Positions 3,823-49,363 of a stretch of 62,352 nt of DNA are shown one piece after another; positions within the stretch are counted from its first letter, which is position 1, and the number at the start of each line of letters is the position of its first letter. The stretch covers positions 1 through 62,352 of the IMG/VR virus record IMGVR_UViG_3300050821_003061. One strand, written 5' to 3'. The DNA is from a virus. The translations under genes were made by a program, and so were the position numbers. The notes beneath the pieces are model-generated. The model had not been told where the DNA came from, ran no database searches, and worked only from the letters and a program-made list of their open reading frames with translations.

Positions 3823-6495
3823 ATGATCCCAACCCTTGCGGGCAACTTTCCGGTCGATGGCTCAGACACAACGACCGCTGGGTTCAGAGGGACGCAAGGA
3901 GGCACGTCTGGCGGCCCAACGTCTTCGAGCGGAGACGAAGACCAGCGCGTGCTGCTCGAACAGGAAGCGCTGCGCGAGGGCAATATGCTGCGTCTCGCGC
4001 AGGAAGCCGAAAGCCAGGGCTCGACTTTCTTTCAAACTGCGGTGCGTTCGTTCTGGGCACGCAACTACCGCGCGTATCGCTCTCAGCACTTCGAGGGATC
4101 GAAATATCTGTCTCAGCGCTTTGCCGGAAGGTCAAAGACCTTCCGCCCCAAAACGCGCGATGCCGTCCGCAAGAAAATGCAAGCCGCCGCAACGGCCCTT
4201 TTCTCGACTGGCGATGTCGTTTCAATCACACCGGAAAACGAAGCCGATCAGGTCCAGGCGGCAAGCGCGGCCCTCAAACAAGAGCTGATAAATTATCGTC
4301 TGTCTCGGGAAACCAAACGGAACGGCATTAAGTGGTTCTTGATTGCCTCCGGTGCCGTCCAGACGATGCAAATCACCGGGGTCTGCGTTTCAAAGCAGTC
4401 ATGGATTTTCAAAGAGGAGAAAACCGACAAGCGCGGCGAGAACGAGCGCCGTAACGAACAGAGTTTTGCTTTGTCCCAAAGCATTCCTCAGGGGCCTGCC
4501 ATGGGGCCTGGAGGAGGTATGCCAGGGGCAAACCCCGGGGGCGTCGCGGCCCCCGGGCCGACCCAAGTTCCAGGGGGAGCGCCTGTTGCTCCGCCGGCGC
4601 CGTCCAGCCCAGCAGGTTTGACGCCGAGCGGCGGTGCTCCTCCTGGACCGCCCCAAGGTCTCAGTAATGGGCCTCAAGCTCCAAGTATGGGGCCTCAAGC
4701 TCCAAGTAGCCCTCCGCCGCCGCCAAATCCGCCAGGTCAATTGCAGGCGTCGATCCAATCGCCGCCGTTCGAGCCGGAGGAGCGGAAAAAGACACGGATC
4801 ATCGTGGACCGGCCGGATATCGACTTAATCGCGCCGGAGAACGTCATCTTCGATCCCAATTGCAATTGGACCGATCCGGCGCAATCGTCACAGTATCTCA
4901 GGATCGCCCGCCCAATGTCCGCGGATGAGGCTTGGCTGCACGTCTCGCGCTCGCAGGGGCAAGATAAAAAAATCCCTTTCCTCGATACGCCGATCGAAGT
5001 CTTCCGATCCGCTGTGTCGCCGACATCCGGGCCTTCCGACAGCATCGCAAGCCGTGTGTCTCGTAACGAGGGCACCGACCCGATTATGATGGTCAGCGGG
5101 ACATTCGGGAGGGTCTGGCTTTACGAATGGTACATGCGGATCGCCGGAGCAGACTACACGTTTTGGACGCTCGGCATACAGCGGATGCTATCGACACCGG
5201 TCTTGACCGCCGATGCCTACCCTGAGCAGGGCGGCGCGCGGCCGGTCGTCATCGGCCTTGGAGCCATTGAGGCGTTCCGCCCCTATCCCATGTCGCCGGT
5301 CGAGAGCTGGCAGCCGCTCCAACTCGAATTGAATGATCAGGTCAATTTGAGATTGGACCATCTCAAGCAATGCATTGCGCCTCCTGCGTTGGTCAAGCGG
5401 GGCGCCGATGTCGATCTCAAGGCGATCCAGAAACGCGGCGCCGATCGCATCATCATGATCACCAACCAGGGCGATGTCGAATGGGCGCAAATCCCCGATA
5501 TCCCGCAATCCGCAGCCCAGCAAGACGCGCAACTGAACAGCGATTTTGACAGTCTTGCCGGCGTCATGAACATGGGGACCGTGCAGACGAACCGGCAGCT
5601 CAATGAGACCGTTGGCGGGATGAACCTGCTCGCCGGGGATGCGTCGTCAACCTCCGAGTTCGACCTGTCGGTCGAAACAGAGACATGGGTTGCCCCCGTC
5701 CTTGAGCAGGTTATGAAGCTTGAGGAATATTACGAGAGCGACGAAACCGTGTTGGCGATTGCCGGCGAAAAGGCGAGACTGTTTCAAAGGTTCGGTATGT
5801 CGGAAATAACCGACAGCCTTCTGACGGCGGAAACAAGCCTTACGATCAAAGTTGGGGTTGGCGCGGCAAATCTGCCGATGCAGCGGTTGCAGAAATTCCA
5901 AATGGCGGCGCAGACCGTTGGGCAAGTGCTTGAACCGTTCGTCGTGGCCGGCGTGATCAAGCCGCCAACTCCAAACGTCGAGGAAATTGTTAACACCGTG
6001 TTCGGTGCGGCAGGCTTCCGCGACGGAGGCGATCGATTCTTTACCGATCTTGGCGGTGCGCAAGACCAGGCGCCGGACCCGAAGGCGCAAGCCATGATGG
6101 CCGAGCAGGACACCAAGAAGCAGGCCAACGTGATCGCCGCGCAGAAGATACAGTCGGACGCGCAAATCAAGCGCGAGGAACTCGCCCAAAAGGATCGCCA
6201 GGACGCGGCGAAGATCGAACTCGAAAGAATGCGCTCGCGTACCGAACTCTCCAAAAACGTGGTCTCTATGGGCCACGATCGCGGCAAGCAAGCCGCCGAT
6301 CACGTCCACAACCTGCACAAGCAGGCACAGGATCATGCGCACCAGGCGCGCACGGCACAAAATTCAGACCTTGCAAAGCTCTTTGGCAACGCCATGAGCG
6401 GCGCGAGTGGAGGCCAGGGTGGTCAGAGCGGCGAGATGCCAGGAGGCACCCCTGCCGCGCCGCCAACGCAGCCTGACATGGTGCCCGCCGCATGA
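3823..6495 (+). CDS. Portal protein
   Basis: An 890-residue protein, in the size range of large podovirus portals. It forms the dodecameric ring at the unique capsid vertex through which DNA is packaged and ejected. An N-terminal helical region (about 40-200) is followed by a Pro/Gly/Gln-rich insert (about 225-320), then the alpha/beta core (about 330-690). A long charged coiled-coil C-terminus (about 740-850) resembles the barrel of P22-type portals. It is followed by the scaffold and capsid genes in the expected order. The Pro-rich insert is odd and may be a surface-exposed linker. Confidence 0.85.
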   Translation: MIPTLAGNFPVDGSDTTTAGFRGTQGGTSGGPTSSSGDEDQRVLLEQEALREGNMLRLAQEAESQGSTFFQTAVRSFWARNYRAYRSQHFEGSKYLSQRFAGRSKTFRPKTRDAVRKKMQAAATALFSTGDVVSITPENEADQVQAASAALKQELINYRLSRETKRNGIKWFLIASGAVQTMQITGVCVSKQSWIFKEEKTDKRGENERRNEQSFALSQSIPQGPAMGPGGGMPGANPGGVAAPGPTQVPGGAPVAPPAPSSPAGLTPSGGAPPGPPQGLSNGPQAPSMGPQAPSSPPPPPNPPGQLQASIQSPPFEPEERKKTRIIVDRPDIDLIAPENVIFDPNCNWTDPAQSSQYLRIARPMSADEAWLHVSRSQGQDKKIPFLDTPIEVFRSAVSPTSGPSDSIASRVSRNEGTDPIMMVSGTFGRVWLYEWYMRIAGADYTFWTLGIQRMLSTPVLTADAYPEQGGARPVVIGLGAIEAFRPYPMSPVESWQPLQLELNDQVNLRLDHLKQCIAPPALVKRGADVDLKAIQKRGADRIIMITNQGDVEWAQIPDIPQSAAQQDAQLNSDFDSLAGVMNMGTVQTNRQLNETVGGMNLLAGDASSTSEFDLSVETETWVAPVLEQVMKLEEYYESDETVLAIAGEKARLFQRFGMSEITDSLLTAETSLTIKVGVGAANLPMQRLQKFQMAAQTVGQVLEPFVVAGVIKPPTPNVEEIVNTVFGAAGFRDGGDRFFTDLGGAQDQAPDPKAQAMMAEQDTKKQANVIAAQKIQSDAQIKREELAQKDRQDAAKIELERMRSRTELSKNVVSMGHDRGKQAADHVHNLHKQAQDHAHQARTAQNSDLAKLFGNAMSGASGGQGGQSGEMPGGTPAAPPTQPDMVPAA

Positions 6496-8645: not shown

Positions 8646-8750
8646 ATGGCCGGACAACTATGGACGGTCTCAAGCGAGGGCGGCTTTGCATATTCAGATG
8701 AACTTTCTGACTATATGCGCATCGTCACTCAGCCACTTACTAAATTCCGT
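8646..8750 (+). CDS. Major capsid protein, exon 1 (N4-gp56 family)
   Basis: Thirty-five codons starting MAGQLWTVSSEGG and ending QPLTKFR. This is the usual N-terminus of N4-gp56-type major capsid proteins, which normally continue directly into QFV or similar. Here an in-frame TAA follows at 8751, exactly at the predicted 5' splice site of a group I intron. Without splicing only a 35-residue peptide would be made. The last eight exon bases pair with the intron guide sequence at 8760-8767, ending in the diagnostic U-G pair. Confidence 0.85.
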
Positions 8751-9573
8751 TAACAACTGGCGGAATTAGGAACGTATCGCAAAATGCAGTTCTGCGATGC
8801 TCCCGATGGAGAACAGAAAGGTCTCAATCGTGGAGATTTGTTCCACTGGAATGTTTCGCGAAAAGTGTAGGCATTCCTTAAAGCCTGCTATATGCTGGAA
8901 CAGCTTCAAAAGACCGGCTCTCCTGATCATGGAAGAATGAGCGGTACACGGAGCCAATCAGCAGGAAACCTTAATGGTAAGCGAAGCAGAAATGGGATGG
9001 CTTGCCGGGATTATCGACGGAGAGGGAACGATTGTTCTTTTTGTCGGCTTTAGGAAAGGCGGCAAACTTAACACAGCCTCTCCCCAGGTTATCATCGGCA
9101 ACACGGAAAAGGTAATGATCGAGAAGGTGGCCGATATCTACGGTCGCCTTGGCGTAGGTGTCCATATTTATCACCATGAGCCAAAATCAGCCTGTGGTGT
9201 TCCTGGCCGCGTCTTGTCAAAATACAAGACAATGTATCACGCAAGCGTCGTCGGCTTCCAACGGACACAGAAGCTCCTAACCGTGATTTCTCCATATCTA
9301 ATTACGGTCAAGCGGCAAAAGGCCGAGGCCGTACTTCGCTTCATCGAGCAACGCGGCAAGAAAATCTTCAAGGACGGGAAATTCCGGTGCGGCCAATTCC
9401 AAGGCAGCAAATACGACATCGATGATCTAACTATGATCAGAGATATCGTCGCAAGCGGATCACGATCCAAGAAATTGCCGCTCATCGAAGGGCTCCTCAG
9501 AGACTACACGCAGGCGCGAGACGCACAACCTCGCATGATATAGTCCGAACTCCCGCGAAATCGGGAGAGCGCG
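8751..9573 (+). ncRNA. Group I intron in the major capsid gene
   Basis: The 5' splice site follows T8750. Exon bases 8743-8750 pair perfectly with 8760-8767, with U8750-G8760 wobble (P1). A hairpin ATCGCA/TGCGAT (8776-8781, 8793-8798) suits P2. P4 is formed by TGCTG (8893-8897) and CAGCA (8959-8963), within the conserved P and Q elements. The R element (TCAGAGACTACA, 9497-9508) and S element (GATATAGTCC, about 9537-9546) pair as GACTA/TAGTC in P7. A CTCCCG/CGGGAG hairpin (9550-9555, 9562-9567) fits P9. The 3' end is placed after G9573 because that keeps the capsid frame; G9574 would not. The intron carries a homing endonuclease gene. Confidence 0.85.
8974..9543 (+). CDS. LAGLIDADG homing endonuclease, intron-encoded
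   Basis: A 189-residue protein with the motif LAGIIDGEG at residues 10-18, the metal-binding dodecapeptide of LAGLIDADG enzymes, in a single-motif architecture that should act as a homodimer. It would cut intronless capsid genes at the exon junction and spread the intron by repair. The Shine-Dalgarno sequence (CAGGAAACC) lies inside the Q element, and the TAG stop lies inside the S element, so translation and intron folding must compete. Only this gene separates the two capsid exons. Confidence 0.9.
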   Translation: MVSEAEMGWLAGIIDGEGTIVLFVGFRKGGKLNTASPQVIIGNTEKVMIEKVADIYGRLGVGVHIYHHEPKSACGVPGRVLSKYKTMYHASVVGFQRTQKLLTVISPYLITVKRQKAEAVLRFIEQRGKKIFKDGKFRCGQFQGSKYDIDDLTMIRDIVASGSRSKKLPLIEGLLRDYTQARDAQPRMI

Positions 9574-10443
9574 GCAGAAATGACGCGCCGCCAGCACCCC
9601 GCTGGTCAACAAGCAACAGCAAGCTACACCAATATCGGCACTCAAGGGCGCCAGCTCGACGAGCGCCAGGCAATGCCCGAGGGCGGCTTTACGATCCTAC
9701 AGCGGACGCTGACGATCACCGAAGCCGGTATCTCGGTGCCATTCACCGGCAAACTGATGGACCTCGCCAAGCATGACATCATGGCGATCATCAATCAGAC
9801 GCTGAAAAACGACGCCAGGAAATACTTCGACATCCAGGCCTTCTTGCAGTTCAAGCAGACCCCGCTTCGAGCTGCACCAACAGGCGGAACTTCCCTCACG
9901 TCAGTCACGGTCTCAACGGCTGGCTCAACGGCGATCACCAACAACGTCGGCCTGAACACCGGGCATATCAAGGCTCTTTCAGACTACATGAAAGAAGCCA
10001 ACATCCCGCCGTTCAAAGACGACGACTACATGATGATCTCGCGGCCGACGACATACCGGCCGTTTAAGAACACCCTCGAAGGCATCAAGCAGTACACGGT
10101 CCTTGGCATCGCCGAAATCTTCTCCGGCGAAATCGGACGCTACGAAAACACCCGCTTCATTGAACAGACGTTCATCCCGGCGGGCGGTTCCGATGCTTCG
10201 GTTCTCTTCGATCCTTACGCGCAAGTAGCCGATCCATGGGCGAACGGACAATCCTCATGGGCCTTCCTGTTCGGCGCCGATACCGTGACGGAAGCGATTG
10301 CTCTTCCCGAGGAAATCAGGGCGAAAATCCCCGACGACTACGGAAGATCGCGCGGCGTTGCTTGGTACTACCTCGGCGGCTTCGGCATCGCCCATCCCGA
10401 CGCGGCAAACGCCAAAATCGTCATGTGGGATTCCGCAACTTAA
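9574..10443 (+). CDS. Major capsid protein, exon 2 (N4-gp56 family)
   Basis: The bulk of the capsid protein. It contains 'MPEGGFTILQRTLTITE', 'SVPFTGKL', 'LPEEIRAKIPDDYGRSRGVAWY', and the final 'GGFGIAHPDAANA', all characteristic of N4-gp56-type shells. The natural N-terminus is exon 1; spliced length would be about 324 residues, normal for the family. An ATG at 9580 could be mistaken for a gene start, but no good ribosome binding site precedes it and the family N-terminus would be missing. It is followed by two hairpins. Confidence 0.9.
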   Translation, partial: AEMTRRQHPAGQQATASYTNIGTQGRQLDERQAMPEGGFTILQRTLTITEAGISVPFTGKLMDLAKHDIMAIINQTLKNDARKYFDIQAFLQFKQTPLRAAPTGGTSLTSVTVSTAGSTAITNNVGLNTGHIKALSDYMKEANIPPFKDDDYMMISRPTTYRPFKNTLEGIKQYTVLGIAEIFSGEIGRYENTRFIEQTFIPAGGSDASVLFDPYAQVADPWANGQSSWAFLFGADTVTEAIALPEEIRAKIPDDYGRSRGVAWYYLGGFGIAHPDAANAKIVMWDSAT

Positions 10444-15687: not shown

Positions 15688-17772
15688 GTGCGCGCGCTTT
15701 CCTTAACCGGGATGCCGCCGCCAAACGCTTCGACCGATGCCAAGCTCGCCTGGTGTATGCAGGCGCTTACGACGATCGCCGCGTTCTCCCGGCAAGAGGG
15801 AAGCACGCTAGCCGACGCTTATACCATAAAGGCTCCTACCCCGCCGCTCAGAAAACTCGATGTTACCAACAACACGCCTACGCAAACGGCGGAGGTTCTC
15901 GCCACCTTTCTTCGCGACATGCAGAAGCGCGGCGTGCAGGGTGGCGACGGAGTTACCGCCGAAGACGAAGGCGGCGGCGGCCCGCCAGGACCGCCCGGTC
16001 CCACGGGGCCTTCCGGTCCGGCAGGTTCCTCGGGTCCGGCAGGTCCTACGGGGCCTGCGGGTGCTGCCGGTCCGACAGGTTCCTCCGGGCCGGCAGGTGC
16101 TTCTGGGGCAAGCGGGCCTCCAGGTCCGATACTCTTCTTCGATCCGGCCGAGCCCGATGAACCGGCCATGGTGCCAGGTCAGGCGGGTGCGGCTGGCCTG
16201 CCAGGCTCCCCTGGCTCTCCGGGCGCGCCCGGTCCGCAAGGCGCCACTGCGTACCTTGAGGGGCCGGAGGCGGACGAGCCGATCGTCATTCCCGGCGCAC
16301 CAGGCCAGTCAGGCGCGCCAGGTCTGACGGGCGCTCCGGGGCCTATCGGACCTCCAGTCTATTTAGAGGCTCCCGAGGCTGACGAACCGCTTCCTGGTCC
16401 GCCAGGCGCGCCTGGCTTGCAGGGCATACCAGGCATTCCGGGGCCGGTCGGTCCACCAGTCTATTTGGAAGCTCCAGAAGCCGACGAACCGGTGATGTTC
16501 CCCGGTGTGGCGGGAGCCGCAGGGGCTCCTGGCATTCAGGGGCCTGCCGGGCCGCAGGGCGCGACGGCGTTCCTTGAGGGACCAGAGGCTGATGAGCCTC
16601 TAGTAATACCAGGTCCGGCTGGTTCCCAGGGCTCGCAGGGAACCACTGGTGCGACCGGCGCGCAGGGTCCTCTCGGCCCTGCCGTCTACCTTGAAGCACC
16701 CGAGGCGGATGAGCCTATAGTTCAGCCGGGGCCGCCGGGTTCCCCGGGCACGTCAGGCACGACGGGAGGACAAGGCCCCGCTGGTCCTGCCGTCTATCTC
16801 GAAGCGCCAGAGGCTGACGAACCGATAATCACGCCGGGAGTTGCTGGAACCCCTGGCTCGCCGGGTACGACCGGCGCTCAAGGACCTCTCGGGCCGCCGG
16901 TCTATCTTGAGGCACCGGAGGCCGATGAGCCGATAACGCAGCCAGGCCCCACTGGTTCGCAGGGCATCCAGGGCATCCAGGGCGTACCAGGACCGGTGGG
17001 CCCCCCTGTCTATCTTGAAGCCCCGGAAGCCGACGAGCCCGTGGTTATCCCGGTTGTCGGGCCACAGGGCATTCAGGGAATAACCGGCGCGCAAGGACCT
17101 CTTGGGCCGGCCGTTTACCTTGAGGCTCCAGAGGCGGACGAGGCCGTTGCACTTGGTCCGGTTGTCGGACCGCAGGGCATCCAGGGCATAACGGGCGCGC
17201 AAGGGCCGCTCGGACCGGCAGTCTACCTCGAAGCGCCGGACGCCGATGAGCCGGTAGTCCAGCCAGGTGGACCATCCATTCCAGTGCTGGGATTGGTAGG
17301 GGTGCCTCTGTCAACCGGCGCCGTGACAATCGCCGCGACGGTTACCCCAACTAGTTGTGGAGTATCTTATTCAACACCACCATGTAATACAACGCAAATA
17401 TATAGACTGACAGCCATTGGTACATACACGGCTGTGTCGAGTGCCACGGCTAGGAGCGCTGAGGCGATAGTTAAATGGGGGGCTAATCTTGGCGGCATTA
17501 CATTGCCGGTCGCATTATCCACTGCTCAAACTACTAACTTCCGTCTTGAGTTTTTTGTTGTTGGTGCTTCTTCTTCAACAGCATATCTAACAGGCTCAAT
17601 ATTTACATCTTTAAATTCTACTACCGGGGTGTTTTCACAGATTAACATAGCACCGGTAACCAGTAGTACAACAGGGGCAACGACTAACATCTTCCTCGAA
17701 TTCGCGATGACTGTCGTTGTGACCGGCGACATATGGACTATTCAGCAGGCAATAATCGAAAGGCTTCAGTGA
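15688..17772 (+). CDS. Collagen-like fibre with [10 protein letters not shown] spacers
   Basis: A 694-residue protein (GTG start). The first 95 residues are a helical head. Residues about 96-530 consist of Gly-X-Y collagen triplets broken by eleven copies of an acidic spacer, consensus (V/A)[10 protein letters not shown], most preceded by GP(P/A). The C-terminal 165 residues form a beta-rich Thr/Ser domain likely to be the trimerising, receptor-binding tip. The last part (from about 17320) is visibly more AT-rich than the shaft, suggesting exchange of the tip by recombination. Confidence 0.8.
15979..17265 (+). repeat. Collagen-like and acidic-spacer repeat tract
   Basis: Gly-X-Y coding tract with eleven acidic spacers at roughly 80-120 base intervals. 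Spacers 3-11 are almost identical at protein level, while the triplet blocks between vary in length. Confidence 0.85.
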
Positions 17773-25468: not shown

Positions 25469-28400
25469 ATGACGGACGCAGCAGCAGCGGACCCGTGGGC
25501 CGGCCTTGCTAATTGGGACCATCCACTCCCTCCCGGCTTTGAATATGTCGATGACAAGAACTATCCCCCGCCTCCGCGCCAAACCTCGGCGCGCAGCGTC
25601 CTAGGCGCCGGAGCATCCGGCATCAACGCCGGCCTTGCGGGAACGCTTGGGCTCCCCGTCGATGTCGCCAACACGGCGCTGCGCGGGGTTGGCCTGCAAA
25701 CCAACCCAGCCCCGATCATGGGCTCGGCATGGCTGCGCGGAATCGAGCGCAGCGTCGGGATCAATCCCGATCTCGCGTCCGACGCGACGACGGCCGAGAA
25801 GATCGCCCACGCTGGCGGTTATGGCGCGGCGGCCGCAACCGTGCCAGCCGCGGGCGTTGGGCTTGCCGGCGAGGCTGGTGCACTCACCGGACCGGCCTTA
25901 GAGACGGCGCAGGCGATTACCGGTGCACCGACCGCCACGACAGCAGGATTGGGCGCCGTAGCCGGCGCGGCCGGCGGGGCCGCCGCCGAAGCGGCGCCGA
26001 AGGGATTTGAGACAGCGGCTTCACTCGCTGCTCAATTGGCGGCCGGACACGGCTTTGGGAAAGGGGTATCGAGCCTTACCTCGACACCCCCCCCAAGCGA
26101 TATCGAGCAGTTCCTGAACGAGGCTGACGTTGCCTCGGCGCGCGCGGCCGGCGCAAAGACGCGGGTAGAGATCGATGAATTTATCCGAAACAAAGAGGCT
26201 GGTACGACGGCCGCCCTCCCGGCTCCTGCAAGCATGGTGGGAGAGGGTGCCCCCGCGAATGCGCCTCATGTCGCAGAGCCTCCACAAGCCGAAGCGCAAG
26301 CTCCTCCCAACATTGTGGCCCCCGAGAATGCGCCTCCTGTCGCAGAGCAAGCCGGAGCCGCTCAGGCCGGAACTCGCCAAGCGCCCGTCAAGGTACAAGC
26401 CCCCGACGAAATCGAGCCTGCTCGCAATGTGGCGGACACTGCACCTTCGCCTGCTCAATCCGAGGCCGGTAACTATCAGAAGGGCCACGCGAATTTCGAC
26501 GGGTTGCCCGTCACGATCGAAAATCCAAAGGGTTCGATCAGATCAGGCACCGATCCGAATGGCACGCCATGGAGTTCCGTCCTTCCGGCGGACTACGGCT
26601 ACGTAAAAGGCTCGGTTGGCAAGGACGGCGATCATGTCGATATTTTCCTCGGCGACAAGGGGCCGAACGGAAAAGCCTTCGTCATCGACCAGAACGACCC
26701 AGCGACCGGTAAGTTCGACGAGCACAAGATCGTCGCTGGCGTCGATAACGTAGCAGAAGCGGCGCAAATCTACCATGGCGCCTTCCAGGATGGCTCCGCG
26801 CCGCAGCGCATCGGCGGAATTACCGAAGTTCCGATTGATCAGCTCAAAACCTGGCTCGCGAGCGGGCCGGTAAAGAAGCCGTTCGCCAAACCGGCTCCGC
26901 TACCGGAGGGGTTCGTTCCTTACACTGGTTTTGAAGATGGGACCGACCGGCCGGTCACTGCAACAAAACCCGCGCAAAATATTCCTGAAAATATTACCGC
27001 GGGCCTGACGGCGGAACAGGAAGCCGTCGTCACATCGCACCTAAAAGCATCGGGACTCACGCAGGCCGATATCGGCCAATTGTGGCCGCTTGGCCTCCGT
27101 CCGATCGATATCGATCCGCAGGCCGCTGCCGCTGCCAAGCAGCATGAGGCGGCGGGCGCGCCGCCGGACACAGCGTACGAGAGAGCCGTCATCGAGGCGG
27201 CGCTCGCCGATCCGAAAGTTCAAGGTATTAACGATGGCGAACAGCTCCCCGCTGCCCCCGAACCAATACAAAGTTCTGTTGCGACGGCTCCAGAGCCTCG
27301 CCCGCCTGTCGCGGGGGCCGGACCAGTTACGCTACCAGCGCTGGGCAAAAGCCCTGCTCCTGGCGCACCGGAAACGGCACCCACAAGCCTAACAGACGCC
27401 GCCGGGCGCCAGCATGTTCTCGATACATCGCAGCCATCGGACGCGATCGCGAAGCATCTCCTGGAAAAAGGTTCTCTTTCCAGAGAAGACGCCGCAAAGC
27501 TCACCGGCCACAATCTCAGCGATCCGAACCAGCTAAAGGCTTTCGAGGAAAATGTCGAGCTTGGCGTCGTCAAGGCCGCGCGGCACATCATTAGGGCAAT
27601 AGCCCAACCGGAAGTCTTCGACCGGCTCGTCAAACTCTACGGCGATCAGCCCAAGCTCGGCACACGAACCTCGACCTCGATGCGCGATCAGGCGTACAGC
27701 ACGCCCATACCGCTGGCCTATGCCGCTTCGAGGCTTTCCGGTGTCGCGCCGGACAAAACTGTTTACGAGCCGTCCGCGGGCAACGGTGCGCTTTTGATCG
27801 AGGCGCACGCCGTCGATACCGTCGCCAATGAATTGAATCCTGGACGGCTAAATGCATTGAAAAGCCAAGGCTTCCTTGCTATGAACAAGGATGCCTCGAA
27901 ACCAACTACAGCCGAAGCGGCGGTCAAGCAAAACGATGGTCCGTTCGATATTGTATTGCTCAATCCTCCTTTTGGAGTGCGTCACGGCGAAGGTGGTGCA
28001 GGGGACCGTTTTGACCTATCGCGTTTCCAGCCTGGCTATGAGACTGGCGAGATCGATCATGCTATCGCGCTGAACTCGCTTGCCGCGATGAAGCCGGACG
28101 GGCGCGCCGTCCTGATCCTCGGCGGCCCATCGCCACTTGCGAAATCGGACGAGGCCCGCACCAAGGCTTACGGAGCGAAGGCCAAGCGCGAGTTTTACAA
28201 GACCCTTTACGATAAGTTCAACGTCGATGGACATTTCACGGTCTCCGGCGACCTCTACGAAAAGCAGGGCGCCGGCTGGCCGGTTGATGTAATTACGATT
28301 TCGGGAGCCGGAAAGTCCGCGCTCCTCTACCCTATGATGACCGCGCCCCCCATGTTGAATACGTGGGCCGCAGTGAAGGAGAAGGCTCTTGCCGAGCAAC

Positions 28401-31400
28401 CAAGCCATCCGCAGCCAGTTAGCGAGCCACGCGGCGAAGCTCATGCACCGAGTCCCACAGTCGGAGCGCCCGGACATGATATTGAGGATCAACCGCTCAA
28501 TGGCGGACTCGGGAATGCTGGACCCCCTAATCGACCCGAAGGCGAACCCGGAGCACTTCGGCCAACAGGCGTTCCTCAACAACATGAGCATCGAGAACCA
28601 TCTGCCGCACCTGAACCTACCGAACATCCTGTGCGCGGAGAACCCGGAGGACATGGCCAACCGCGTCCTACCGAACGACGGCCACCTGGAGTAGAGAACC
28701 GCATTTCGGCTGTCCTTGGCGATCTTGCAAACTATGATGGCAATCGCGTGTACCTATCGACGGTGCGCGCCGCGCTTTCTGACTTGCCACGCGCCGAGCA
28801 AGACGCTGCGATCAAGAGCTATGCGGCCAGCCACGACGTTGGGCTTTATCCAAACGACAATAGGATAACAATTACGCAAGATCAGCGCGACAACGCCGTT
28901 CACATCGGCAATGAGCCTCGACATTTCTTTTTTGTTGGGAACCCACCACCGCCACGCCATGCCGCGCCAGCACGCCAACCGCGCGCGGCTCCGGCGCCCC
29001 CTTCGCAGCCAGAAGCGCCGAAGGAAGCCGAAACCGAAAATCAGGTCGCATACTCGCCAAAGTCCACGGCAGGCACCAAACTTGGCACCCTCGCCCCCCG
29101 CAATATGCGTGACGCTTCTGACGCCGCTCTCGCCAGCGTGGAAAGCCGGCATGGCCCAATCGCCAAATACGTCTCAAGCGAGCTTGGCTACAAAGCCGCC
29201 GATCTTGGCAAGCATTACTCGGCCGAGCAGGTTGACGCTCTCGGCCTCGCAATCGACAACATCGAGCGCGGCGGATCGTTGATCCTCGGCGATCAGACCG
29301 GCATCGGCAAGGGCCGCGTCCTCGCTGGGCTCATTCGGTATGGCCTGCGCAAGCGTATGACGCCGATCTTCGTTACCGAGAAGGCAAACCTCTATGCCGC
29401 CATGTTCGACGACATGACGGACATCGGTATGACGGACATGCTCGGCCGCGAGCCCCGCATTCTACCCACCGACAGCAACTTGAAGCTCCCGATCGGCAGC
29501 CAAGGAACAATTCTGAAAACGCCGGACGGTCCAGAGCAGGAGAAGCAACTTCGCGATGTCGCCGCCAATGGCAAGTTGCCCGATCACGACATGATCATGA
29601 CCACCTACTCGCAAATGCAGACGGTCAAGGGCCAAGACACGGCGCGCCGTGGATTTCTGCGGTTGATGGCACCGAATGCCATCATCCTTTTCGACGAGAG
29701 CCACAATGCCGGCGGCGCGGCAGTCGAGAAGCGCATTGCTAAGGGTAAACCACCGCCGCCGCCAGACCGCGCCGAATTCGCCCGCGAGCTCGTTCAGAAG
29801 GCCAAGGCCGTAGTCTATTCCTCGGCGACCTACGCCAAGCGGCCGGACAGCATGCGGCTCTATTCGAAGACCGACATGCGCTACGCCGTCGCCGACATGA
29901 AGGACCTCGGCGAAGCGATCAAAAAGGGCGGCGTGCCGATGCAGCAAGTCGTTGCATCCGCGCTTGCCGAAAGCGGCCAGTATCTTCGCCGCGAACGATC
30001 CTTCGACGGTATCAAGTACGATATGGAAGTGACGCCGATCGATCGCGCGCTCTACAGCGGGTTCTCCAAGGCGCTGCGGGCGATCAACGATTTCTCGAAG
30101 AAAGCCGGGAAATCCGTCAAAGACATCGACAAGGAAGTCAAGGCCGAGGCGGCAATCGCCGGCCAGGACGCCTCGGTTGGGGCGGCTGGCGCGGAAAGCA
30201 CGAATTTTACCTCCCTCATGCACAACGTTGTCTCGCAGTTCCTGCTCGCCTCGAAGGCGGAGCGCGCGGGCCAGCTTGCGGTCGAGGCGATCAACAGAGG
30301 GGAGAGGCCGGTCATCGCCGTCGCGAACACGCTGGAAAGCTTCGTGTCTGACTATATGGAGCAGACTGGCGCGAAGACCGGCGATCTCATCAGGGCGAGC
30401 TTCGGCGATCTTCTCTCACGCTACCTCGATCGCTCGCGTGTCGTGACGATCAAGAAGCCGTTCGGCGCCGTGACCGACAAGCACACGATGACCGACGAGG
30501 AACTAGGACCCGAAGGGCTGGCGGCCTACCATGCCGCGCAAGCCGTCATCAACGGTCTGGATTTCGGCAAACTCCCGATTTCCCCGATCGACAAAATCCG
30601 CCAGGTGATTTCGCAAGCCGGCCATGCGGTTTCCGAGATCACCGGGCGCAACAATGTGCTCGATTACGGCAAAGGCAACATTCCGCAGATCGGCACGCGA
30701 TCCGGGAAGGAAAGGTCCGTCGCTGGGCGTACGCAGACGGTAAAGGATTTCAATTCAGGAAAGTTGAAAGCGCTAATTCTCAATGAAAGCGGTGCGACCG
30801 GCATATCGCTCCACGACAGCGAGGCGTTCCCGGAAAGCGGACGCGGCCAGCGGGCCATGATCATCGCCCAGGCGCATCCGAACATTGACACGCACATGCA
30901 AATGCTCGGGCGCGTCAACCGCACCGGCCAGGTATCCAAACCGCGCTATGCCCAGCTCGGCGCCGATGTCGCGGCGGAAAAGCGGCCGATGGCCGTGCTC
31001 GCCAAGAAACTCGCCTCCCTCAACGCCAATACGACGGCGAGCGCGAAGAGTGGACTTTCCGGCAAAGGAGCGGTCGATTTCCTGAACCGCTACGGCGATG
31101 AAGTGGTAACGCAGGTCATGCTGGATGACATGCGGGCTCATATCGACATGGGCGAGCCGCTCAAGGAGTCGCTCAGTCCAACAGAACCGATGGAGGACGC
31201 CGCGCGCCGGGCGACCGGCCGCATCGCGTTCCTGGAACCGGATATCCAGGACCGTATCATGGACGCGATCGAGAGCCAGTATAAGGCCAAGATCGACGAT
31301 CTCGACGAGCGCGGAGAAAACGCGCTTGAGGCGAAGCACCTTGACTTACAGGCCAAATACGAGGGTGGCGCGGACATCTCTCAAAAGACCGGCGATAGCC

Positions 31401-32449
31401 CCTTCCAAGACGCCGTGCATGTCGGCACCTACGACGTAAAGAGCGACCGCAAGCCGCCGAAATTCGACGACGTGATGAAATCGGCCTATGCGATGCTCGG
31501 GCGCGAGATCGTTCCGAAATATGCGCCGCTCGAAGCGCTGCAAACGGCTGGCGGGAAGACAGTCTCAGCGATGATGACCCGCGCCGATCAGGCGTTCGCC
31601 GAGTACAAGAGCGCGATGCGAGCGATTACCAAAGACCCGGATATCGCGGCAGAGCAAGCCAATCGATTGGCGGACGGCAGAGAGGCAATGCGGGCCAAGC
31701 TCGCCGTCGTCTATCCTGGCTCAATTTTGCATCTCGACGAGAACGATCAAGTCCCGCTGCCCTATGCGATTGTGATGGTGGTGAAACACGAGGGAAAGGC
31801 GCTCAATCCTTATGCGCCGTCGAGTTGGCAGGCCACGATGGCATTCCCCGGTTACGGCATGAGAACGGTTCCGTTTTCGCAGTTGGGAACGAGGGAAACC
31901 GCCGAACCGGATGCGATGCAGGTAGCGCCAGCATCTATGAAACCGGATGAACTCGCCAAGATGTTCGACAGCTTCAAGAGCGAGCTTCGCGAAAAGCGGG
32001 TGATCGCCACGGGCAATCTACTTACGGCCTTCGATCTCCTACGCCATGCTGGCCAGATCGCGCATTTCACGATGGACGACGGCACGGTTCGCCAGGGCAT
32101 CATTCTCCCGCGCAAGCAGACCTCATTCAAGGACGTTGCCGGCGGGGCCGTCAAGAAACTTCGAGAGCCGAGCGACATCATCAAATTTCTGGAGAAACCC
32201 GGGGGAACCGCGGTTTCCGCGGATGGAGCGATCACGATAAGCCGCCTATATGGCGGCTTTCTTATTTCCGTCGTTGGCGCGCGATCCATAGGCGGAAAAT
32301 ACTTCCTCGATCCCGGCGTTCTTGAGGCGCTAGGCCGTGACGAATTCATCAAACGCGGCAGCGAAATGCGTGCGTCTGCGCCCCCCGACAGAGCCACGGC
32401 TGTCTTCGAGGCCCTGATCAAAGCCGGCGCGAATTTCCAGCAGAAGTAA
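25469..32449 (+). CDS. Giant polyvalent protein: InPase-like, N6-methylase and SBNO-type helicase
   Basis: A 2326-residue protein. The leader DPWAGLANWD (8-17) matches the ejection protein at 21157. An InPase-like domain spans about 338-470 (IENPKGSIRSG...GKDGDHVDIFLG...FDEHKIV). An N6-adenine methylase follows with EPSAGNGA (767-774) and NPPF (832-835). A Strawberry-notch-like SF2 helicase has GDQTGIGKGR (1274-1283), DESH (1409-1412) and MLGRVNRTGQ (about 1812-1821). This is the architecture of phage polyvalent proteins related to P1 DarB, injected with DNA to protect it from host restriction. The Pro/Gly linker at about 974-1075 overlaps another gene. Confidence 0.85.
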   Translation: MTDAAAADPWAGLANWDHPLPPGFEYVDDKNYPPPPRQTSARSVLGAGASGINAGLAGTLGLPVDVANTALRGVGLQTNPAPIMGSAWLRGIERSVGINPDLASDATTAEKIAHAGGYGAAAATVPAAGVGLAGEAGALTGPALETAQAITGAPTATTAGLGAVAGAAGGAAAEAAPKGFETAASLAAQLAAGHGFGKGVSSLTSTPPPSDIEQFLNEADVASARAAGAKTRVEIDEFIRNKEAGTTAALPAPASMVGEGAPANAPHVAEPPQAEAQAPPNIVAPENAPPVAEQAGAAQAGTRQAPVKVQAPDEIEPARNVADTAPSPAQSEAGNYQKGHANFDGLPVTIENPKGSIRSGTDPNGTPWSSVLPADYGYVKGSVGKDGDHVDIFLGDKGPNGKAFVIDQNDPATGKFDEHKIVAGVDNVAEAAQIYHGAFQDGSAPQRIGGITEVPIDQLKTWLASGPVKKPFAKPAPLPEGFVPYTGFEDGTDRPVTATKPAQNIPENITAGLTAEQEAVVTSHLKASGLTQADIGQLWPLGLRPIDIDPQAAAAAKQHEAAGAPPDTAYERAVIEAALADPKVQGINDGEQLPAAPEPIQSSVATAPEPRPPVAGAGPVTLPALGKSPAPGAPETAPTSLTDAAGRQHVLDTSQPSDAIAKHLLEKGSLSREDAAKLTGHNLSDPNQLKAFEENVELGVVKAARHIIRAIAQPEVFDRLVKLYGDQPKLGTRTSTSMRDQAYSTPIPLAYAASRLSGVAPDKTVYEPSAGNGALLIEAHAVDTVANELNPGRLNALKSQGFLAMNKDASKPTTAEAAVKQNDGPFDIVLLNPPFGVRHGEGGAGDRFDLSRFQPGYETGEIDHAIALNSLAAMKPDGRAVLILGGPSPLAKSDEARTKAYGAKAKREFYKTLYDKFNVDGHFTVSGDLYEKQGAGWPVDVITISGAGKSALLYPMMTAPPMLNTWAAVKEKALAEQPSHPQPVSEPRGEAHAPSPTVGAPGHDIEDQPLNGGLGNAGPPNRPEGEPGALRPTGVPQQHEHREPSAAPEPTEHPVRGEPGGHGQPRPTERRPPGVENRISAVLGDLANYDGNRVYLSTVRAALSDLPRAEQDAAIKSYAASHDVGLYPNDNRITITQDQRDNAVHIGNEPRHFFFVGNPPPPRHAAPARQPRAAPAPPSQPEAPKEAETENQVAYSPKSTAGTKLGTLAPRNMRDASDAALASVESRHGPIAKYVSSELGYKAADLGKHYSAEQVDALGLAIDNIERGGSLILGDQTGIGKGRVLAGLIRYGLRKRMTPIFVTEKANLYAAMFDDMTDIGMTDMLGREPRILPTDSNLKLPIGSQGTILKTPDGPEQEKQLRDVAANGKLPDHDMIMTTYSQMQTVKGQDTARRGFLRLMAPNAIILFDESHNAGGAAVEKRIAKGKPPPPPDRAEFARELVQKAKAVVYSSATYAKRPDSMRLYSKTDMRYAVADMKDLGEAIKKGGVPMQQVVASALAESGQYLRRERSFDGIKYDMEVTPIDRALYSGFSKALRAINDFSKKAGKSVKDIDKEVKAEAAIAGQDASVGAAGAESTNFTSLMHNVVSQFLLASKAERAGQLAVEAINRGERPVIAVANTLESFVSDYMEQTGAKTGDLIRASFGDLLSRYLDRSRVVTIKKPFGAVTDKHTMTDEELGPEGLAAYHAAQAVINGLDFGKLPISPIDKIRQVISQAGHAVSEITGRNNVLDYGKGNIPQIGTRSGKERSVAGRTQTVKDFNSGKLKALILNESGATGISLHDSEAFPESGRGQRAMIIAQAHPNIDTHMQMLGRVNRTGQVSKPRYAQLGADVAAEKRPMAVLAKKLASLNANTTASAKSGLSGKGAVDFLNRYGDEVVTQVMLDDMRAHIDMGEPLKESLSPTEPMEDAARRATGRIAFLEPDIQDRIMDAIESQYKAKIDDLDERGENALEAKHLDLQAKYEGGADISQKTGDSPFQDAVHVGTYDVKSDRKPPKFDDVMKSAYAMLGREIVPKYAPLEALQTAGGKTVSAMMTRADQAFAEYKSAMRAITKDPDIAAEQANRLADGREAMRAKLAVVYPGSILHLDENDQVPLPYAIVMVVKHEGKALNPYAPSSWQATMAFPGYGMRTVPFSQLGTRETAEPDAMQVAPASMKPDELAKMFDSFKSELREKRVIATGNLLTAFDLLRHAGQIAHFTMDDGTVRQGIILPRKQTSFKDVAGGAVKKLREPSDIIKFLEKPGGTAVSADGAITISRLYGGFLISVVGARSIGGKYFLDPGVLEALGRDEFIKRGSEMRASAPPDRATAVFEALIKAGANFQQK
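28389..28694 (+). CDS. Probable nested gene inside the polyvalent gene, other frame
   Basis: A 101-residue ORF in the +1 frame with a TTG start. AAGGAG (28376-28381) lies seven bases before it. Of its 101 codons, about 89 end in G or C, like genuine genes here, whereas the polyvalent frame over the same bases has mostly A/T third positions and reads as a Pro/Gly/His-rich linker. The predicted protein has ordinary composition (LASHAAKLMHRVPQSERPDM...NLPNILCAENPEDMA). An overprinted gene is the simplest reading; two compensating frameshifts in the big gene are the alternative. No function is known. Confidence 0.6.
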   Translation: MPSNQAIRSQLASHAAKLMHRVPQSERPDMILRINRSMADSGMLDPLIDPKANPEHFGQQAFLNNMSIENHLPHLNLPNILCAENPEDMANRVLPNDGHLE

Positions 32450-38991: not shown

Positions 38992-40164
38992 TCATCTTCT
39001 CTTTCCCGACACGCTGGCCACAAGTCCGCGCAGCGCGCTTGGCGAAAGATGCGCGTAGGTCGCTTCCACCACCCTTTCCGTCGTTCCAATCGCGCTCGCG
39101 ATCATCGCGAACGAATAGCCCGCCTGAACAGCCCAAGATGCGAAGGTGTGGCGAAGAATATGAGGCGTCACTTCCGGCCCGAGTGCAGCCTTGACGCGCG
39201 CGGTATGCCAGGCCCGCCGCATCTTGGCGATCGGCAAGCCGCCCCATTCGATGACATGGACGCAATTTCGGGAATCTGGTTGACTGACTTCAAGCCCGGG
39301 TTTCCACCTTCGCAAATGCGCGGCAAGCCGTGGCGAGATCGGAACCGGCGGGCGCCGCTTGCTGGACTCGCTCTCCCCGGCGCCGCGGCGGTAAATCAGC
39401 CCAGCGTCGAGATCGATCCAGCCAGCGTCCACGGACGGCAGCCAGCGAAGCCGCAGAATGGCATCGTGACGCGTCCCGGTGTAGAGGCCCAGCAAGATGA
39501 ACCTGGCGACGTGGCGGTGCCCGGAGCGCCATGCAGCCCATAGCAAACGCGCGGCCTCGGATCTAGTGAGCCAGCGCAGCCGAGCGGGCGAGGGCTTCGG
39601 CAGATCCACCGGCACCGGATATTTCAGCTTGCCTTCGCGATGCGCGTAATTCAGCGCCGCGGCAAGGAGACCAAGTTCCCTACGCGCGGAAGATGGTGTG
39701 ACGGTGCGAATGCGCGACGCAAAATTATCCTCCGAGCTAAATTTAGTCGAAGTACTAACAAACTCTAATTTTGTCTTGAAACTGGCAATTGGCTGCGCGG
39801 TGCGCCATGTGGCGTACTCTCGGCTGCGGCCTGCCGTCACGTCGGACACCATCTTGTCGCCCCACCATCTGGCGAGCGGCGCCATCGTATAGGCTGCGAG
39901 TTCTGGACGGCGCATCATTGGCGCGTGTTCTTTGAGGTAGAGAGTAAGGACGTCGGCGACGGGAATTCTGGCCGGATCACCGTCGCCGAAGGCCGGTCGG
40001 TATTTTGCGGCGAGATATTCCGAGAGCCTTTTTTCAGCTTCTCCATGCTGGCTTGCAGCTGAGCCCGTGCCGATCTCATGCCCTCCGTCTCTAATTGACC
40101 ATTGCGGCTGTCGTCCTTTTCTTTTCCGCAAATATAAGTGCGCTCCCTTACTAGGGCGGGGCAT
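38992..40164 (-). CDS. int: Tyrosine recombinase integrase
   Basis: A 390-residue protein. The catalytic set is visible: R232 (TGTRHDAILRLRW), H335-x-x-R338 (PHILRHTFASW) and nucleophile Y370 (VVEATYAHLSP). An N-terminal arm-binding region and a central core-binding domain (about 65-190) precede it. It joins attP and attB at a tRNA-Val gene by strand exchange through a 3'-phosphotyrosine. Its first 250 bases overlap the excisionase gene in another frame. The ATG at 40164 is kept because residues 8-50 resemble the usual N-terminus of alphaproteobacterial phage integrases. Confidence 0.9.
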   Translation of the reverse strand: MPRPSKGAHLYLRKRKGRQPQWSIRDGGHEIGTGSAASQHGEAEKRLSEYLAAKYRPAFGDGDPARIPVADVLTLYLKEHAPMMRRPELAAYTMAPLARWWGDKMVSDVTAGRSREYATWRTAQPIASFKTKLEFVSTSTKFSSEDNFASRIRTVTPSSARRELGLLAAALNYAHREGKLKYPVPVDLPKPSPARLRWLTRSEAARLLWAAWRSGHRHVARFILLGLYTGTRHDAILRLRWLPSVDAGWIDLDAGLIYRRGAGESESSKRRPPVPISPRLAAHLRRWKPGLEVSQPDSRNCVHVIEWGGLPIAKMRRAWHTARVKAALGPEVTPHILRHTFASWAVQAGYSFAMIASAIGTTERVVEATYAHLSPSALRGLVASVSGKRR

Positions 40165-48958: not shown

Positions 48959-49363
48959 GTGCACAAAGAGTTTTTGGGATCAGAGCAAAACGCGATGGAT
49001 GCAGCGGCATTTGTCGATAGCGCCCGCGAAATGGCGGCGTCCCTCGAAGACCGGGAGATACCGGCGGCCAGGTCGCGCCCGCTCGCACGCTTGCGTGTAT
49101 CTAGGCTAGCCGGGGTGTCGGCGTCCCTTCTCCATTCCCTGCGCTATAGGCCGCCGAAGCAGATCGCGGCGGACGTATTCGAGCGCCTTTGCATTGCCGT
49201 CGAGCGGCAAGCGCTCACTCAAATCAGGACATTGGAGAATGAAATTGCGGCGGCTCATGCGCGCCGGCTTGGCGCTGACGATCGCGATCTCGGGAAGGTT
49301 CAAACTGCGCTGGCTGTCGCTCGCGCGCTTATGGAAGGAAGAGAAAAATGGGCAGACCGCTAG
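48959..49363 (+). CDS. Hypothetical HTH-type early protein
   Basis: A 134-residue protein with a GTG start and AAGGAG upstream. Residues 43-80 ('RLRVSRLAGVSASLLHSLRYRPPKQIAADVFERLCIAV', in parts) look like a helix-turn-helix with a following support helix. The C-terminal half is helical. It overlaps the GapR-like gene by 16 bases. Confidence 0.6.
   Translation: MHKEFLGSEQNAMDAAAFVDSAREMAASLEDREIPAARSRPLARLRVSRLAGVSASLLHSLRYRPPKQIAADVFERLCIAVERQALTQIRTLENEIAAAHARRLGADDRDLGKVQTALAVARALMEGREKWADR

What the first reader, a model, noticed from the sequence alone, without database searches (positions are those of the whole stretch)
8646..10443. Group I intron with LAGLIDADG enzyme splits the major capsid gene
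Exon 1 ends at R35 exactly where N4-gp56 proteins continue; the next codon is TAA. The P1 guide (8743-8750 with 8760-8767, ending U-G), P4, P7 (R and S elements) and P9 pairings are all visible. Capsid production therefore depends on RNA splicing. Introns in capsid genes of temperate podoviruses of alphaproteobacteria are, to my knowledge, rarely described.
Basis: partly seen in the sequence, partly recalled or inferred. Interest (0 to 1): 0.85.

Follow-up and report, generated by a model that had tools for sequence, protein, structure and literature searches.

The report
Core-less 36-base intron in capsid gene
This phage's main shell-protein gene is interrupted twice: once by an ordinary self-removing intron carrying its own DNA-cutting enzyme, and once, 100 bases upstream, by a 36-base stub of a second self-splicing intron that kept its cut-and-join signals but lost its whole catalytic machinery, so the phage must use some other way, perhaps the neighbouring intron's machinery, to make its shell.

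Summary
Comparison with an uninterrupted close relative (L004) and 60 distinct full-length homologues shows that the capsid gene here has THREE exons (8646-8750, 8787-8854, 9624-10440) and TWO insertions. The large one, 8855-9623, is an ordinary group I intron (P1, P3-P5, P7-P9 and P10 all form; LAGLIDADG gene inside). That insertion starts with an in-frame TAA, has a perfect P1 ending in U.G, a perfect P10 and a terminal G, but no catalytic core. Full-length group I introns (209-712 nt) occupy exactly this codon boundary, with the same guide sequence, in four other phage lineages, so the 36-nt element is a group I intron stripped to its splice signals. Removal in trans by the intact neighbour's core, a natural counterpart of engineered trans-excision splicing, is the single most likely route to a working capsid (about 0.35). 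A dead allele (about 0.3) and translational restart, readthrough or hopping (about 0.2) are live rivals. The stub is unique in the collections searched; group I introns in phage capsid genes are already known.

The parts
8646..8750 (+). Capsid exon 1, 35 codons (MAGQLWTVSSEGGFAYSDELSDYMRIVTQPLTKFR)
   Evidence: 33/35 residues identical in L004; 14 synonymous and 2 nonsynonymous codon differences
8751..8786 (+). 36-nt core-less group I insert (TAACAACTGGCGGAATTAGGAACGTATCGCAAAATG); begins with an in-frame TAA, ends in G
   Evidence: absent from L004; same site, guide sequence and ends as full-length introns in L014, L081/L115, L106, L114
8743..8767 (+). P1 of the 36-nt insert: 8743-8750 pairs 8760-8767, 7 Watson-Crick pairs plus U8750.G8760 at the splice site
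   Evidence: 8/8 pairs; shuffle test
8755..8791 (+). P10 of the 36-nt insert: 8755-8759 AACTG pairs exon bases 8787-8791 CAGTT
   Evidence: 5/5 pairs; the partners differ in concert in L081 (AAAATG/CATTTT) and L106 (AATTG/CAATT)
8787..8854 (+).
   Evidence: present in L004 and in all 60 distinct full-length homologues; 11 synonymous, 0 nonsynonymous codon differences to L004
8855..9623 (+). Complete group I intron, 769 nt, starting U and ending G
   Evidence: boundaries fixed by L004 (AAT GT|C TAC gives N V Y); Rfam RF00028 17.4 bits over all 253 positions, E 0.12 in a 1.4-kb search, below the gathering score of 50; all core helices present
8848..8877 (+). P1 of the complete intron: 8848-8854 GGAATGT with 8871-8877 GCATTCC, U8854.G8871
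   Evidence: 7/7 pairs
8865..8870 (+). P10 guide of the complete intron, GTGTAG, pairs exon 3 bases 9624-9629 CTACAC
   Evidence: 6/6 pairs
8883..8963 (+). P3 5' strand 8883-8888, P4 8893-8898/8958-8963, P5 8916-8920/8951-8955
   Evidence: 6/6, 6/6 and 5/5 pairs; P3 is GCCTGC/GCAGGC here and CGCAAC/GTTGCG in L081 and L106
8974..9543 (+). LAGLIDADG homing-endonuclease ORF, 189 aa, reading through P7, P3' and P8
   Evidence: PF14528 E 6.6e-5
9502..9545 (+). P7 9502-9506/9541-9545, P3 3' strand 9510-9515, P8 9516-9520/9530-9534
   Evidence: 5/5, 6/6 and 5/5 pairs; P7 is GACTA/TAGTC here and GATCA/TGATC in L081, a compensated change
9550..9605 (+). P9 9550-9555/9562-9567 and two further 3' hairpins (9571-9591, 9591-9605)
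   Evidence: 6/6, 5/5 and 5/5 pairs
9624..10443 (+). Capsid exon 3 (from the last base of the V codon to the stop)
   Evidence: PHROG 1357 major head protein E 2.5e-12; 97-98% identical to L004

Best explanation
The capsid gene is split into three exons by two separate group I elements. (1) The element at 8855-9623 is a complete, mobile group I intron that most likely excises itself: exogenous G attacks after U8854 held in P1, then the exon attacks after G9623 held by P10 (about 0.93; pairings shown, splicing inferred). [quoted passage not shown] an internal deletion removed P3 to P9 and left only P1, J1/2, the P10 guide and the last bases with the terminal G (about 0.92). It cannot splice itself. 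The most likely single way the phage still makes capsid is that this stub is excised at RNA level by a catalytic core supplied from elsewhere, most simply the intact intron that begins 68 nt downstream in the same transcript: the stub's preformed P1 hairpin docks into that core and its own P10 and terminal G position the second step (about 0.35; wholly inferred). The confidence given below is for the anatomy and origin in (1) and (2), not for this last step.
For: Uninterrupted close relative L004 defines both insertions to the base. Full introns at the identical boundary CGT|CA in L014 (209 nt), L114 (233 nt), L081/L115 (686 nt, LAGLIDADG-like ORF read from the sequence) and L106 (712 nt), all with TGGCGGAAT as guide. 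P10 partners differ in concert between these lineages (window AACTG/CAGTT, L081 AAAATG/CATTTT, L106 AATTG/CAATT). Insert boundaries are U|...G|, as in group I introns. Shuffle test 5 in 400,000. All core helices of the downstream intron form, with compensated P3 and P7 differences to L081. No stop falls inside the best match of any of the 29 shared reading frames scored as intact, including terminase and other virion genes, so the genome does not look decayed. The deletion removed the core yet spared exactly the elements a trans-acting core would need. Engineered group I ribozymes excise 64-100-nt introns in trans (64-nt ones shown in E. coli in the passages read), and trans-excision splicing is known (PMC4094466).
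Against: No RNA data. The stub is seen in one assembled genome only; no second case by four pattern scans. A recent deletion in one lysogen would look the same. The stub is 36 nt, a multiple of three, with no further stop after TAA and with an in-frame ATG as its last codon after AGGA, which fits a translational solution somewhat better than chance. Known trans-excision ribozymes supply their own guide sequence, whereas here the stub carries its own. The complete intron scores only 17.4 bits with Rfam (long ORF inserted).
Confidence: 0.85

Rival explanations
1. Dead or defective allele: the core of the R35 intron was lost recently in a lysogen; the stub stays in the mRNA, TAA truncates the capsid protein, and this genome cannot make heads by itself.
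For: Single occurrence; an integrase gene (38992-40164, PHROG 1, E 9e-40) suggests a temperate phage, so a defective prophage could persist; a recent loss would leave all other genes intact, as seen.
Against: No shared gene scored as intact has a stop inside its match; all three exons keep the capsid frame with overwhelmingly synonymous differences to L004 (nucleotide identity over most aligned parts about 75-90%); the deletion kept P1, P10 and the terminal G intact, which a random deletion need not do.
Confidence: 0.3
2. Translational restart: ribosomes stop at TAA (8751) and restart at ATG 8784, the last codon of the stub, giving a 35-residue peptide and a second chain M-QFCDAP..., which together build the shell.
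For: In-frame ATG directly before CAG, with AGGA 12 nt upstream.
Against: The spacing is long and both sites sit in stable hairpins (z -4.3); residues 1-35 are joined to the rest in one chain in all 60 distinct full-length homologues; the bases TG before CA are already shared by the full introns L014, L114 and L081, so the ATG is partly ancestry.
Confidence: 0.1
3. Ribosome hopping as in T4 gene 60, or readthrough of TAA, carries translation across the 36 nt.
For: Stop codon right after the codon before the gap, a stem-loop there, a second stem-loop at the far end (GUAUCGCA/UGCGAUGC), in-frame length with no other stop. Gene 60 also has a take-off stop codon, take-off stem-loop and 3' stem-loop (PMC11194080).
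Against: The only identical landing codon, CGT 8773-8775, is out of frame; in-frame CGC 8778-8780 would need wobble and leave K-M in the protein. The hairpin and stop are explained by intron ancestry: the full introns of L014, L081 and L114 begin TAA too. TAA is an ordinary stop in this genome (9 of 23 reading frames checked).
Confidence: 0.1
4. The first reader's single intron, 8751 to 9623, spliced by the P1 at 8743-8767.
For: P1 is perfect and a core lies downstream.
Against: It would delete the 23-residue segment universal in homologues, shift the frame, and has no P10: the guide AACTG pairs CAGTT at 8787, not CTACAC at 9624.
Confidence: 0.02
5. Assembly artefact or chimera of intron-bearing and intron-free strains.
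For: A virus record assembled from environmental sequence; no reads could be inspected.
Against: An artefact would not be expected to yield an exact U|...G| boundary with P1 and P10 matched to this exon.
Confidence: 0.05

Closest known systems
Group I intron in the capsid gene of mycobacteriophage LittleE (PMC3706429) and of lactococcal phage Tuc2009 (cited there)
   Same: Intron in a major capsid gene, LAGLIDADG gene inside (LittleE), U at the exon end and G at the intron end, splicing shown there by RT-PCR and N-terminal sequencing
   Different: No core-less second insertion reported; a different phage group (siphoviral mycobacteriophages)
Trans-excision splicing and spliceozymes (engineered group I ribozymes, PMC4094466 and references there)
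   Same: A group I core removes a short segment lying in another stretch of RNA, guided by P1 and by contacts at the 3' splice site, in E. coli too
   Different: Engineered; the ribozyme brings the guide sequence, here the excised segment carries it; no natural case known to me
Trans-spliced group I introns of mitochondrial cox1 (Helicosporidium, Isoetes, Trichoplax; PMC2813288)
   Same: Natural group I splicing with pieces in separate RNAs
   Different: There the whole core is still present, in two halves; here no core belongs to the intron at all
Deletion derivatives of the Streptococcus thermophilus phage lysin intron (Foley et al. 2000, title only seen; paper not held)
   Same: Phage group I introns with internal deletions
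   Different: Extent of those deletions could not be read here
T4 gene 60 translational bypass element (PMC11194080)
   Same: Stop codon and stem-loop at the upstream edge, short untranslated gap, 3' stem-loop
   Different: Identical in-frame landing codon missing here; origin here is a group I intron

Membership tests
Group I intron (element 8855-9623) | P1 with U.G at the 5' splice site and guide sequence | tested here: met
   8848-8854/8871-8877, 7/7 pairs
Group I intron (element 8855-9623) | Conserved core P3, P4, P7, P8 | tested here: met
   all form; P3 and P7 differ from L081 with pairing kept; Rfam alignment covers model 1-253 but at 17.4 bits, below gathering 50
Group I intron (element 8855-9623) | Terminal G and P10 | tested here: met
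   G9623; GTGTAG/CTACAC 6/6
Group I intron (element 8855-9623) | Self-splicing | not testable with these tools
   needs RNA
Group I intron (36-nt element 8751-8786) | P1 with U.G, P10, U|...G| boundaries | tested here: met
Group I intron (36-nt element 8751-8786) | Shared insertion site and guide with full-length group I introns | tested here: met
   L014, L081/L115, L106, L114
Group I intron (36-nt element 8751-8786) | Catalytic core P3-P9 | tested here: not met
   only 36 nt; none present. Hence a relic or derivative, not a full member
Mobile (homing) intron | LAGLIDADG endonuclease ORF inside 8855-9623 | tested here: met
   PF14528 23.5 bits against cut-off 22.5; cleavage activity not tested
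Trans-excision splicing substrate | Excision by a core outside the segment | not testable with these tools
   needs an in vitro or in vivo splicing assay
Programmed translational bypass | Matched take-off and in-frame landing codons | tested here: not met
   CGT 8773-8775 is out of frame; only wobble partner CGC in frame

The most novel reading that the evidence does not exclude
A natural group I intron that has lost its entire catalytic core, reduced to 36 nt of splice signals, and is excised by the ribozyme of a different group I intron in the same gene: an intron that has become dependent on another's machinery, parallel to the proposed step from group II introns to spliceosomal introns.
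Probability: 0.3. Interest if true: 0.9.

Novelty: new variant of a known kind. Interest (0 to 1): 0.6.

Why it matters
Group II introns are thought to have given rise to short dependent introns served by a shared machine; for group I introns I know of no natural dependent intron. If the 36-nt stub is removed by its neighbour, it would be a minimal natural case, in an essential and highly expressed gene, testable with one transcript in a tube. If it is instead crossed by the ribosome, it would be an intron remnant turned into a recoding element. If it is dead, it still shows how group I introns can die in place. Separately, this capsid gene family proves to be a hot spot, with introns at about seven sites in ten lineages.

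Tried and rejected
Rfam scan of the whole window: nothing at gathering score; the only group I trace, even at E up to 10, is the intron at 8815-9567, so no second core was found in this genome. A genetic-code explanation (TAA read as sense) is rejected because TAA ends 9 of 23 checked reading frames. Pattern scans of IMG/VR for further stubs: 0 exact copies, 0 with the same guide, 13 looser matches, none in a locus with this capsid gene. The window's LAGLIDADG protein gave no confirmed relative in IMG/VR. No similar DNA in the phage collection; exon 3 protein not found in plasmids and only in the seed MAG among 148 genomes of its class. No solved structure matches the capsid profile.

Full report
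WHAT IS THERE. The window is a 62,352-base virus record, probably of a temperate phage (integrase gene at 38992-40164), with a head module in which the capsid gene lies at 8646-10443. The last 272 residues match PHROG 1357, major head protein (E 2.5e-12). The nearest relative found, L004 in record G001, is collinear over much of its length, mostly at about 75-90% nucleotide identity, and has the first 186 codons of the capsid gene uninterrupted...QPLTKFR-QFCDAPDGEQKGLNRGDLFHWNV-YTNIGTQGRQ.... Laying the window on it gives three exons: 8646-8750, 8787-8854 and 9624-10440, 990 nt, 330 codons.

THE LARGE INSERTION is an ordinary group I intron, 8855-9623, 769 nt. Boundaries: AAT GT|T......AAG|C TAC, joining to N-V-Y. 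P1 is GGAATGT/GCATTCC with U8854.G8871; P10 is GTGTAG/CTACAC; P3, P4, P5, P7, P8 and P9 all form without a mismatch. In the related intron of L081, P3 and P7 have different letters on both sides and still pair. Rfam's group I model aligns end to end but at 17.4 bits, under its threshold, presumably because of the long ORF; standard annotation would miss it. The ORF 8974-9543 is a LAGLIDADG protein.

THE SMALL INSERTION is 8751-8786: CGT|TAACAACTGGCGGAATTAGGAACGTATCGCAAAATG|CAG. Its boundaries are unambiguous. The exon before it ends in U, it ends in G, its bases 8760-8767 pair perfectly with the last eight exon bases (U.G at the junction), and the five bases before that, AACTG, pair with the first five bases of the next exon, CAGTT. 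These are the two pairings by which a group I intron finds its splice sites. In shuffles of the insert both together arise in about 1 of 80,000.

ITS ORIGIN. Complete introns sit at exactly the same codon boundary in other phages of the family: L014 (209 nt, CGT|TAATAGCTGGCGGAAT...ATTG|CAGTT), L114 (233 nt, CGT|TAAGTGCTGGCGGAAT...ATTG|CAGTT), L081 = L115 (686 nt with a LAGLIDADG-like reading frame, CGT|TAACAAAATGGCGGAATT...GTGTG|CATTTT) and L106 (712 nt, also with such a frame, with a longer P1 loop). P10 changes in concert with the exon: AACTG/CAGTT, AGCTG/CAGTT, AAAATG/CATTTT, AATTG/CAATT; in L114 the guide allows only about four pairs. The 36-nt element therefore is a group I intron of this site from which everything between J1/2 and the last dozen bases is gone. 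Three of the four full introns also begin TAA, so the stop codon is ancestral.

WHY IT MATTERS FUNCTIONALLY. With the stub in the mRNA, translation ends at R35. The exon after it (23 residues counting the split V codon) is universal: all 60 distinct full-length homologues carry the corresponding segment joined to the R35 position, and the window differs from L004 there by 11 synonymous and no nonsynonymous codons. Other shared genes are open; 29 reading frames of G001 match over more than 85% of their length without a stop, and the 14 frames flagged in that check were not examined singly beyond the printed matches, several of them being partial or antisense and one being the capsid gene itself. 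The phage therefore either removes the stub, crosses it, restarts after it, or is defective.

HOW IT MOST LIKELY WORKS. Shown: the anatomy and the homology. Inferred: the complete intron splices itself. Inferred with much less certainty: the stub is removed by a core not its own. Engineered group I ribozymes can do this to short segments, in E. coli as well (PMC4094466), needing P1, a terminal G and a contact at the 3' splice site; the stub has kept P1, the terminal G and P10. The nearest core belongs to the intron that begins 68 nt downstream. I put this at about 0.35. A dead allele is about 0.3. Restart at ATG 8784 is about 0.1, hopping or readthrough about 0.1 together; these gain a little from the stub being a multiple of three with a single stop and an in-frame ATG, and from a second hairpin at its 3' edge. 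Against hopping, the only identical landing codon is out of frame.

FAMILY CONTEXT. Of the capsid loci examined, ten distinct lineages including the window carry insertions of this kind in this gene, at about seven sites in window numbering: near W6 (L014, L059, L078 and apparently L114), after R35 (window stub, L014, L081, L106, L114), at V58 (window), near residue 83 (L021), near residue 90 (L059, L078), near P186 (L004, L027) and near W305 (L021, L078). Rfam confirms four of them at or above its threshold (L014 near W6 84.2 bits; L021 88.0, L078 68.1 and 50.7); the rest are assigned from the break in the protein and from recognisable core motifs. L078 appears to hold three introns in one capsid gene. 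Published capsid-gene introns exist (LittleE, Tuc2009; PMC3706429), so the intron itself is a new member of a known kind; the stub is the new variant.

LIMITS. One genome, no RNA, no reads. 

Noticed in passing
L078 3730-6273: One capsid gene with apparently three group I introns (near W6, near residue 90, near W305); two reach Rfam's threshold (68.1 and 50.7 bits).
   Followed up: partly
L004 4219-5000: The window's close relative has its own insertion near P186 of the capsid gene, with a LAGLIDADG-like ORF on the opposite strand (4329-4808); L027 is interrupted at about the same place.
   Followed up: partly
L106 4220-4931: The R35-site intron appears to end in A, not G, if the protein-defined boundary is right (ACTCA|CAATTT); unusual for a group I intron.
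   Followed up: no
window 8774-8800: The last bases of the stub (GUAUCGCA) pair with exon 2 (UGCGAUGC), putting the 3' junction in a hairpin loop; the 66-nt region folds at z -4.3.
   Followed up: partly
window 15688-17772: Tail fibre gene with collagen-like and internally repeated sequence (many overlapping self-similar hits to the relative).
   Followed up: no
window 25469-32449: A 2326-aa protein with matches to DarB-like antirestriction, DNA methyltransferase and virion protein families.
   Followed up: no
window 48984-49355: A 161-aa reading frame of the relative matches here at 40% identity with one stop inside; not examined.
   Followed up: no
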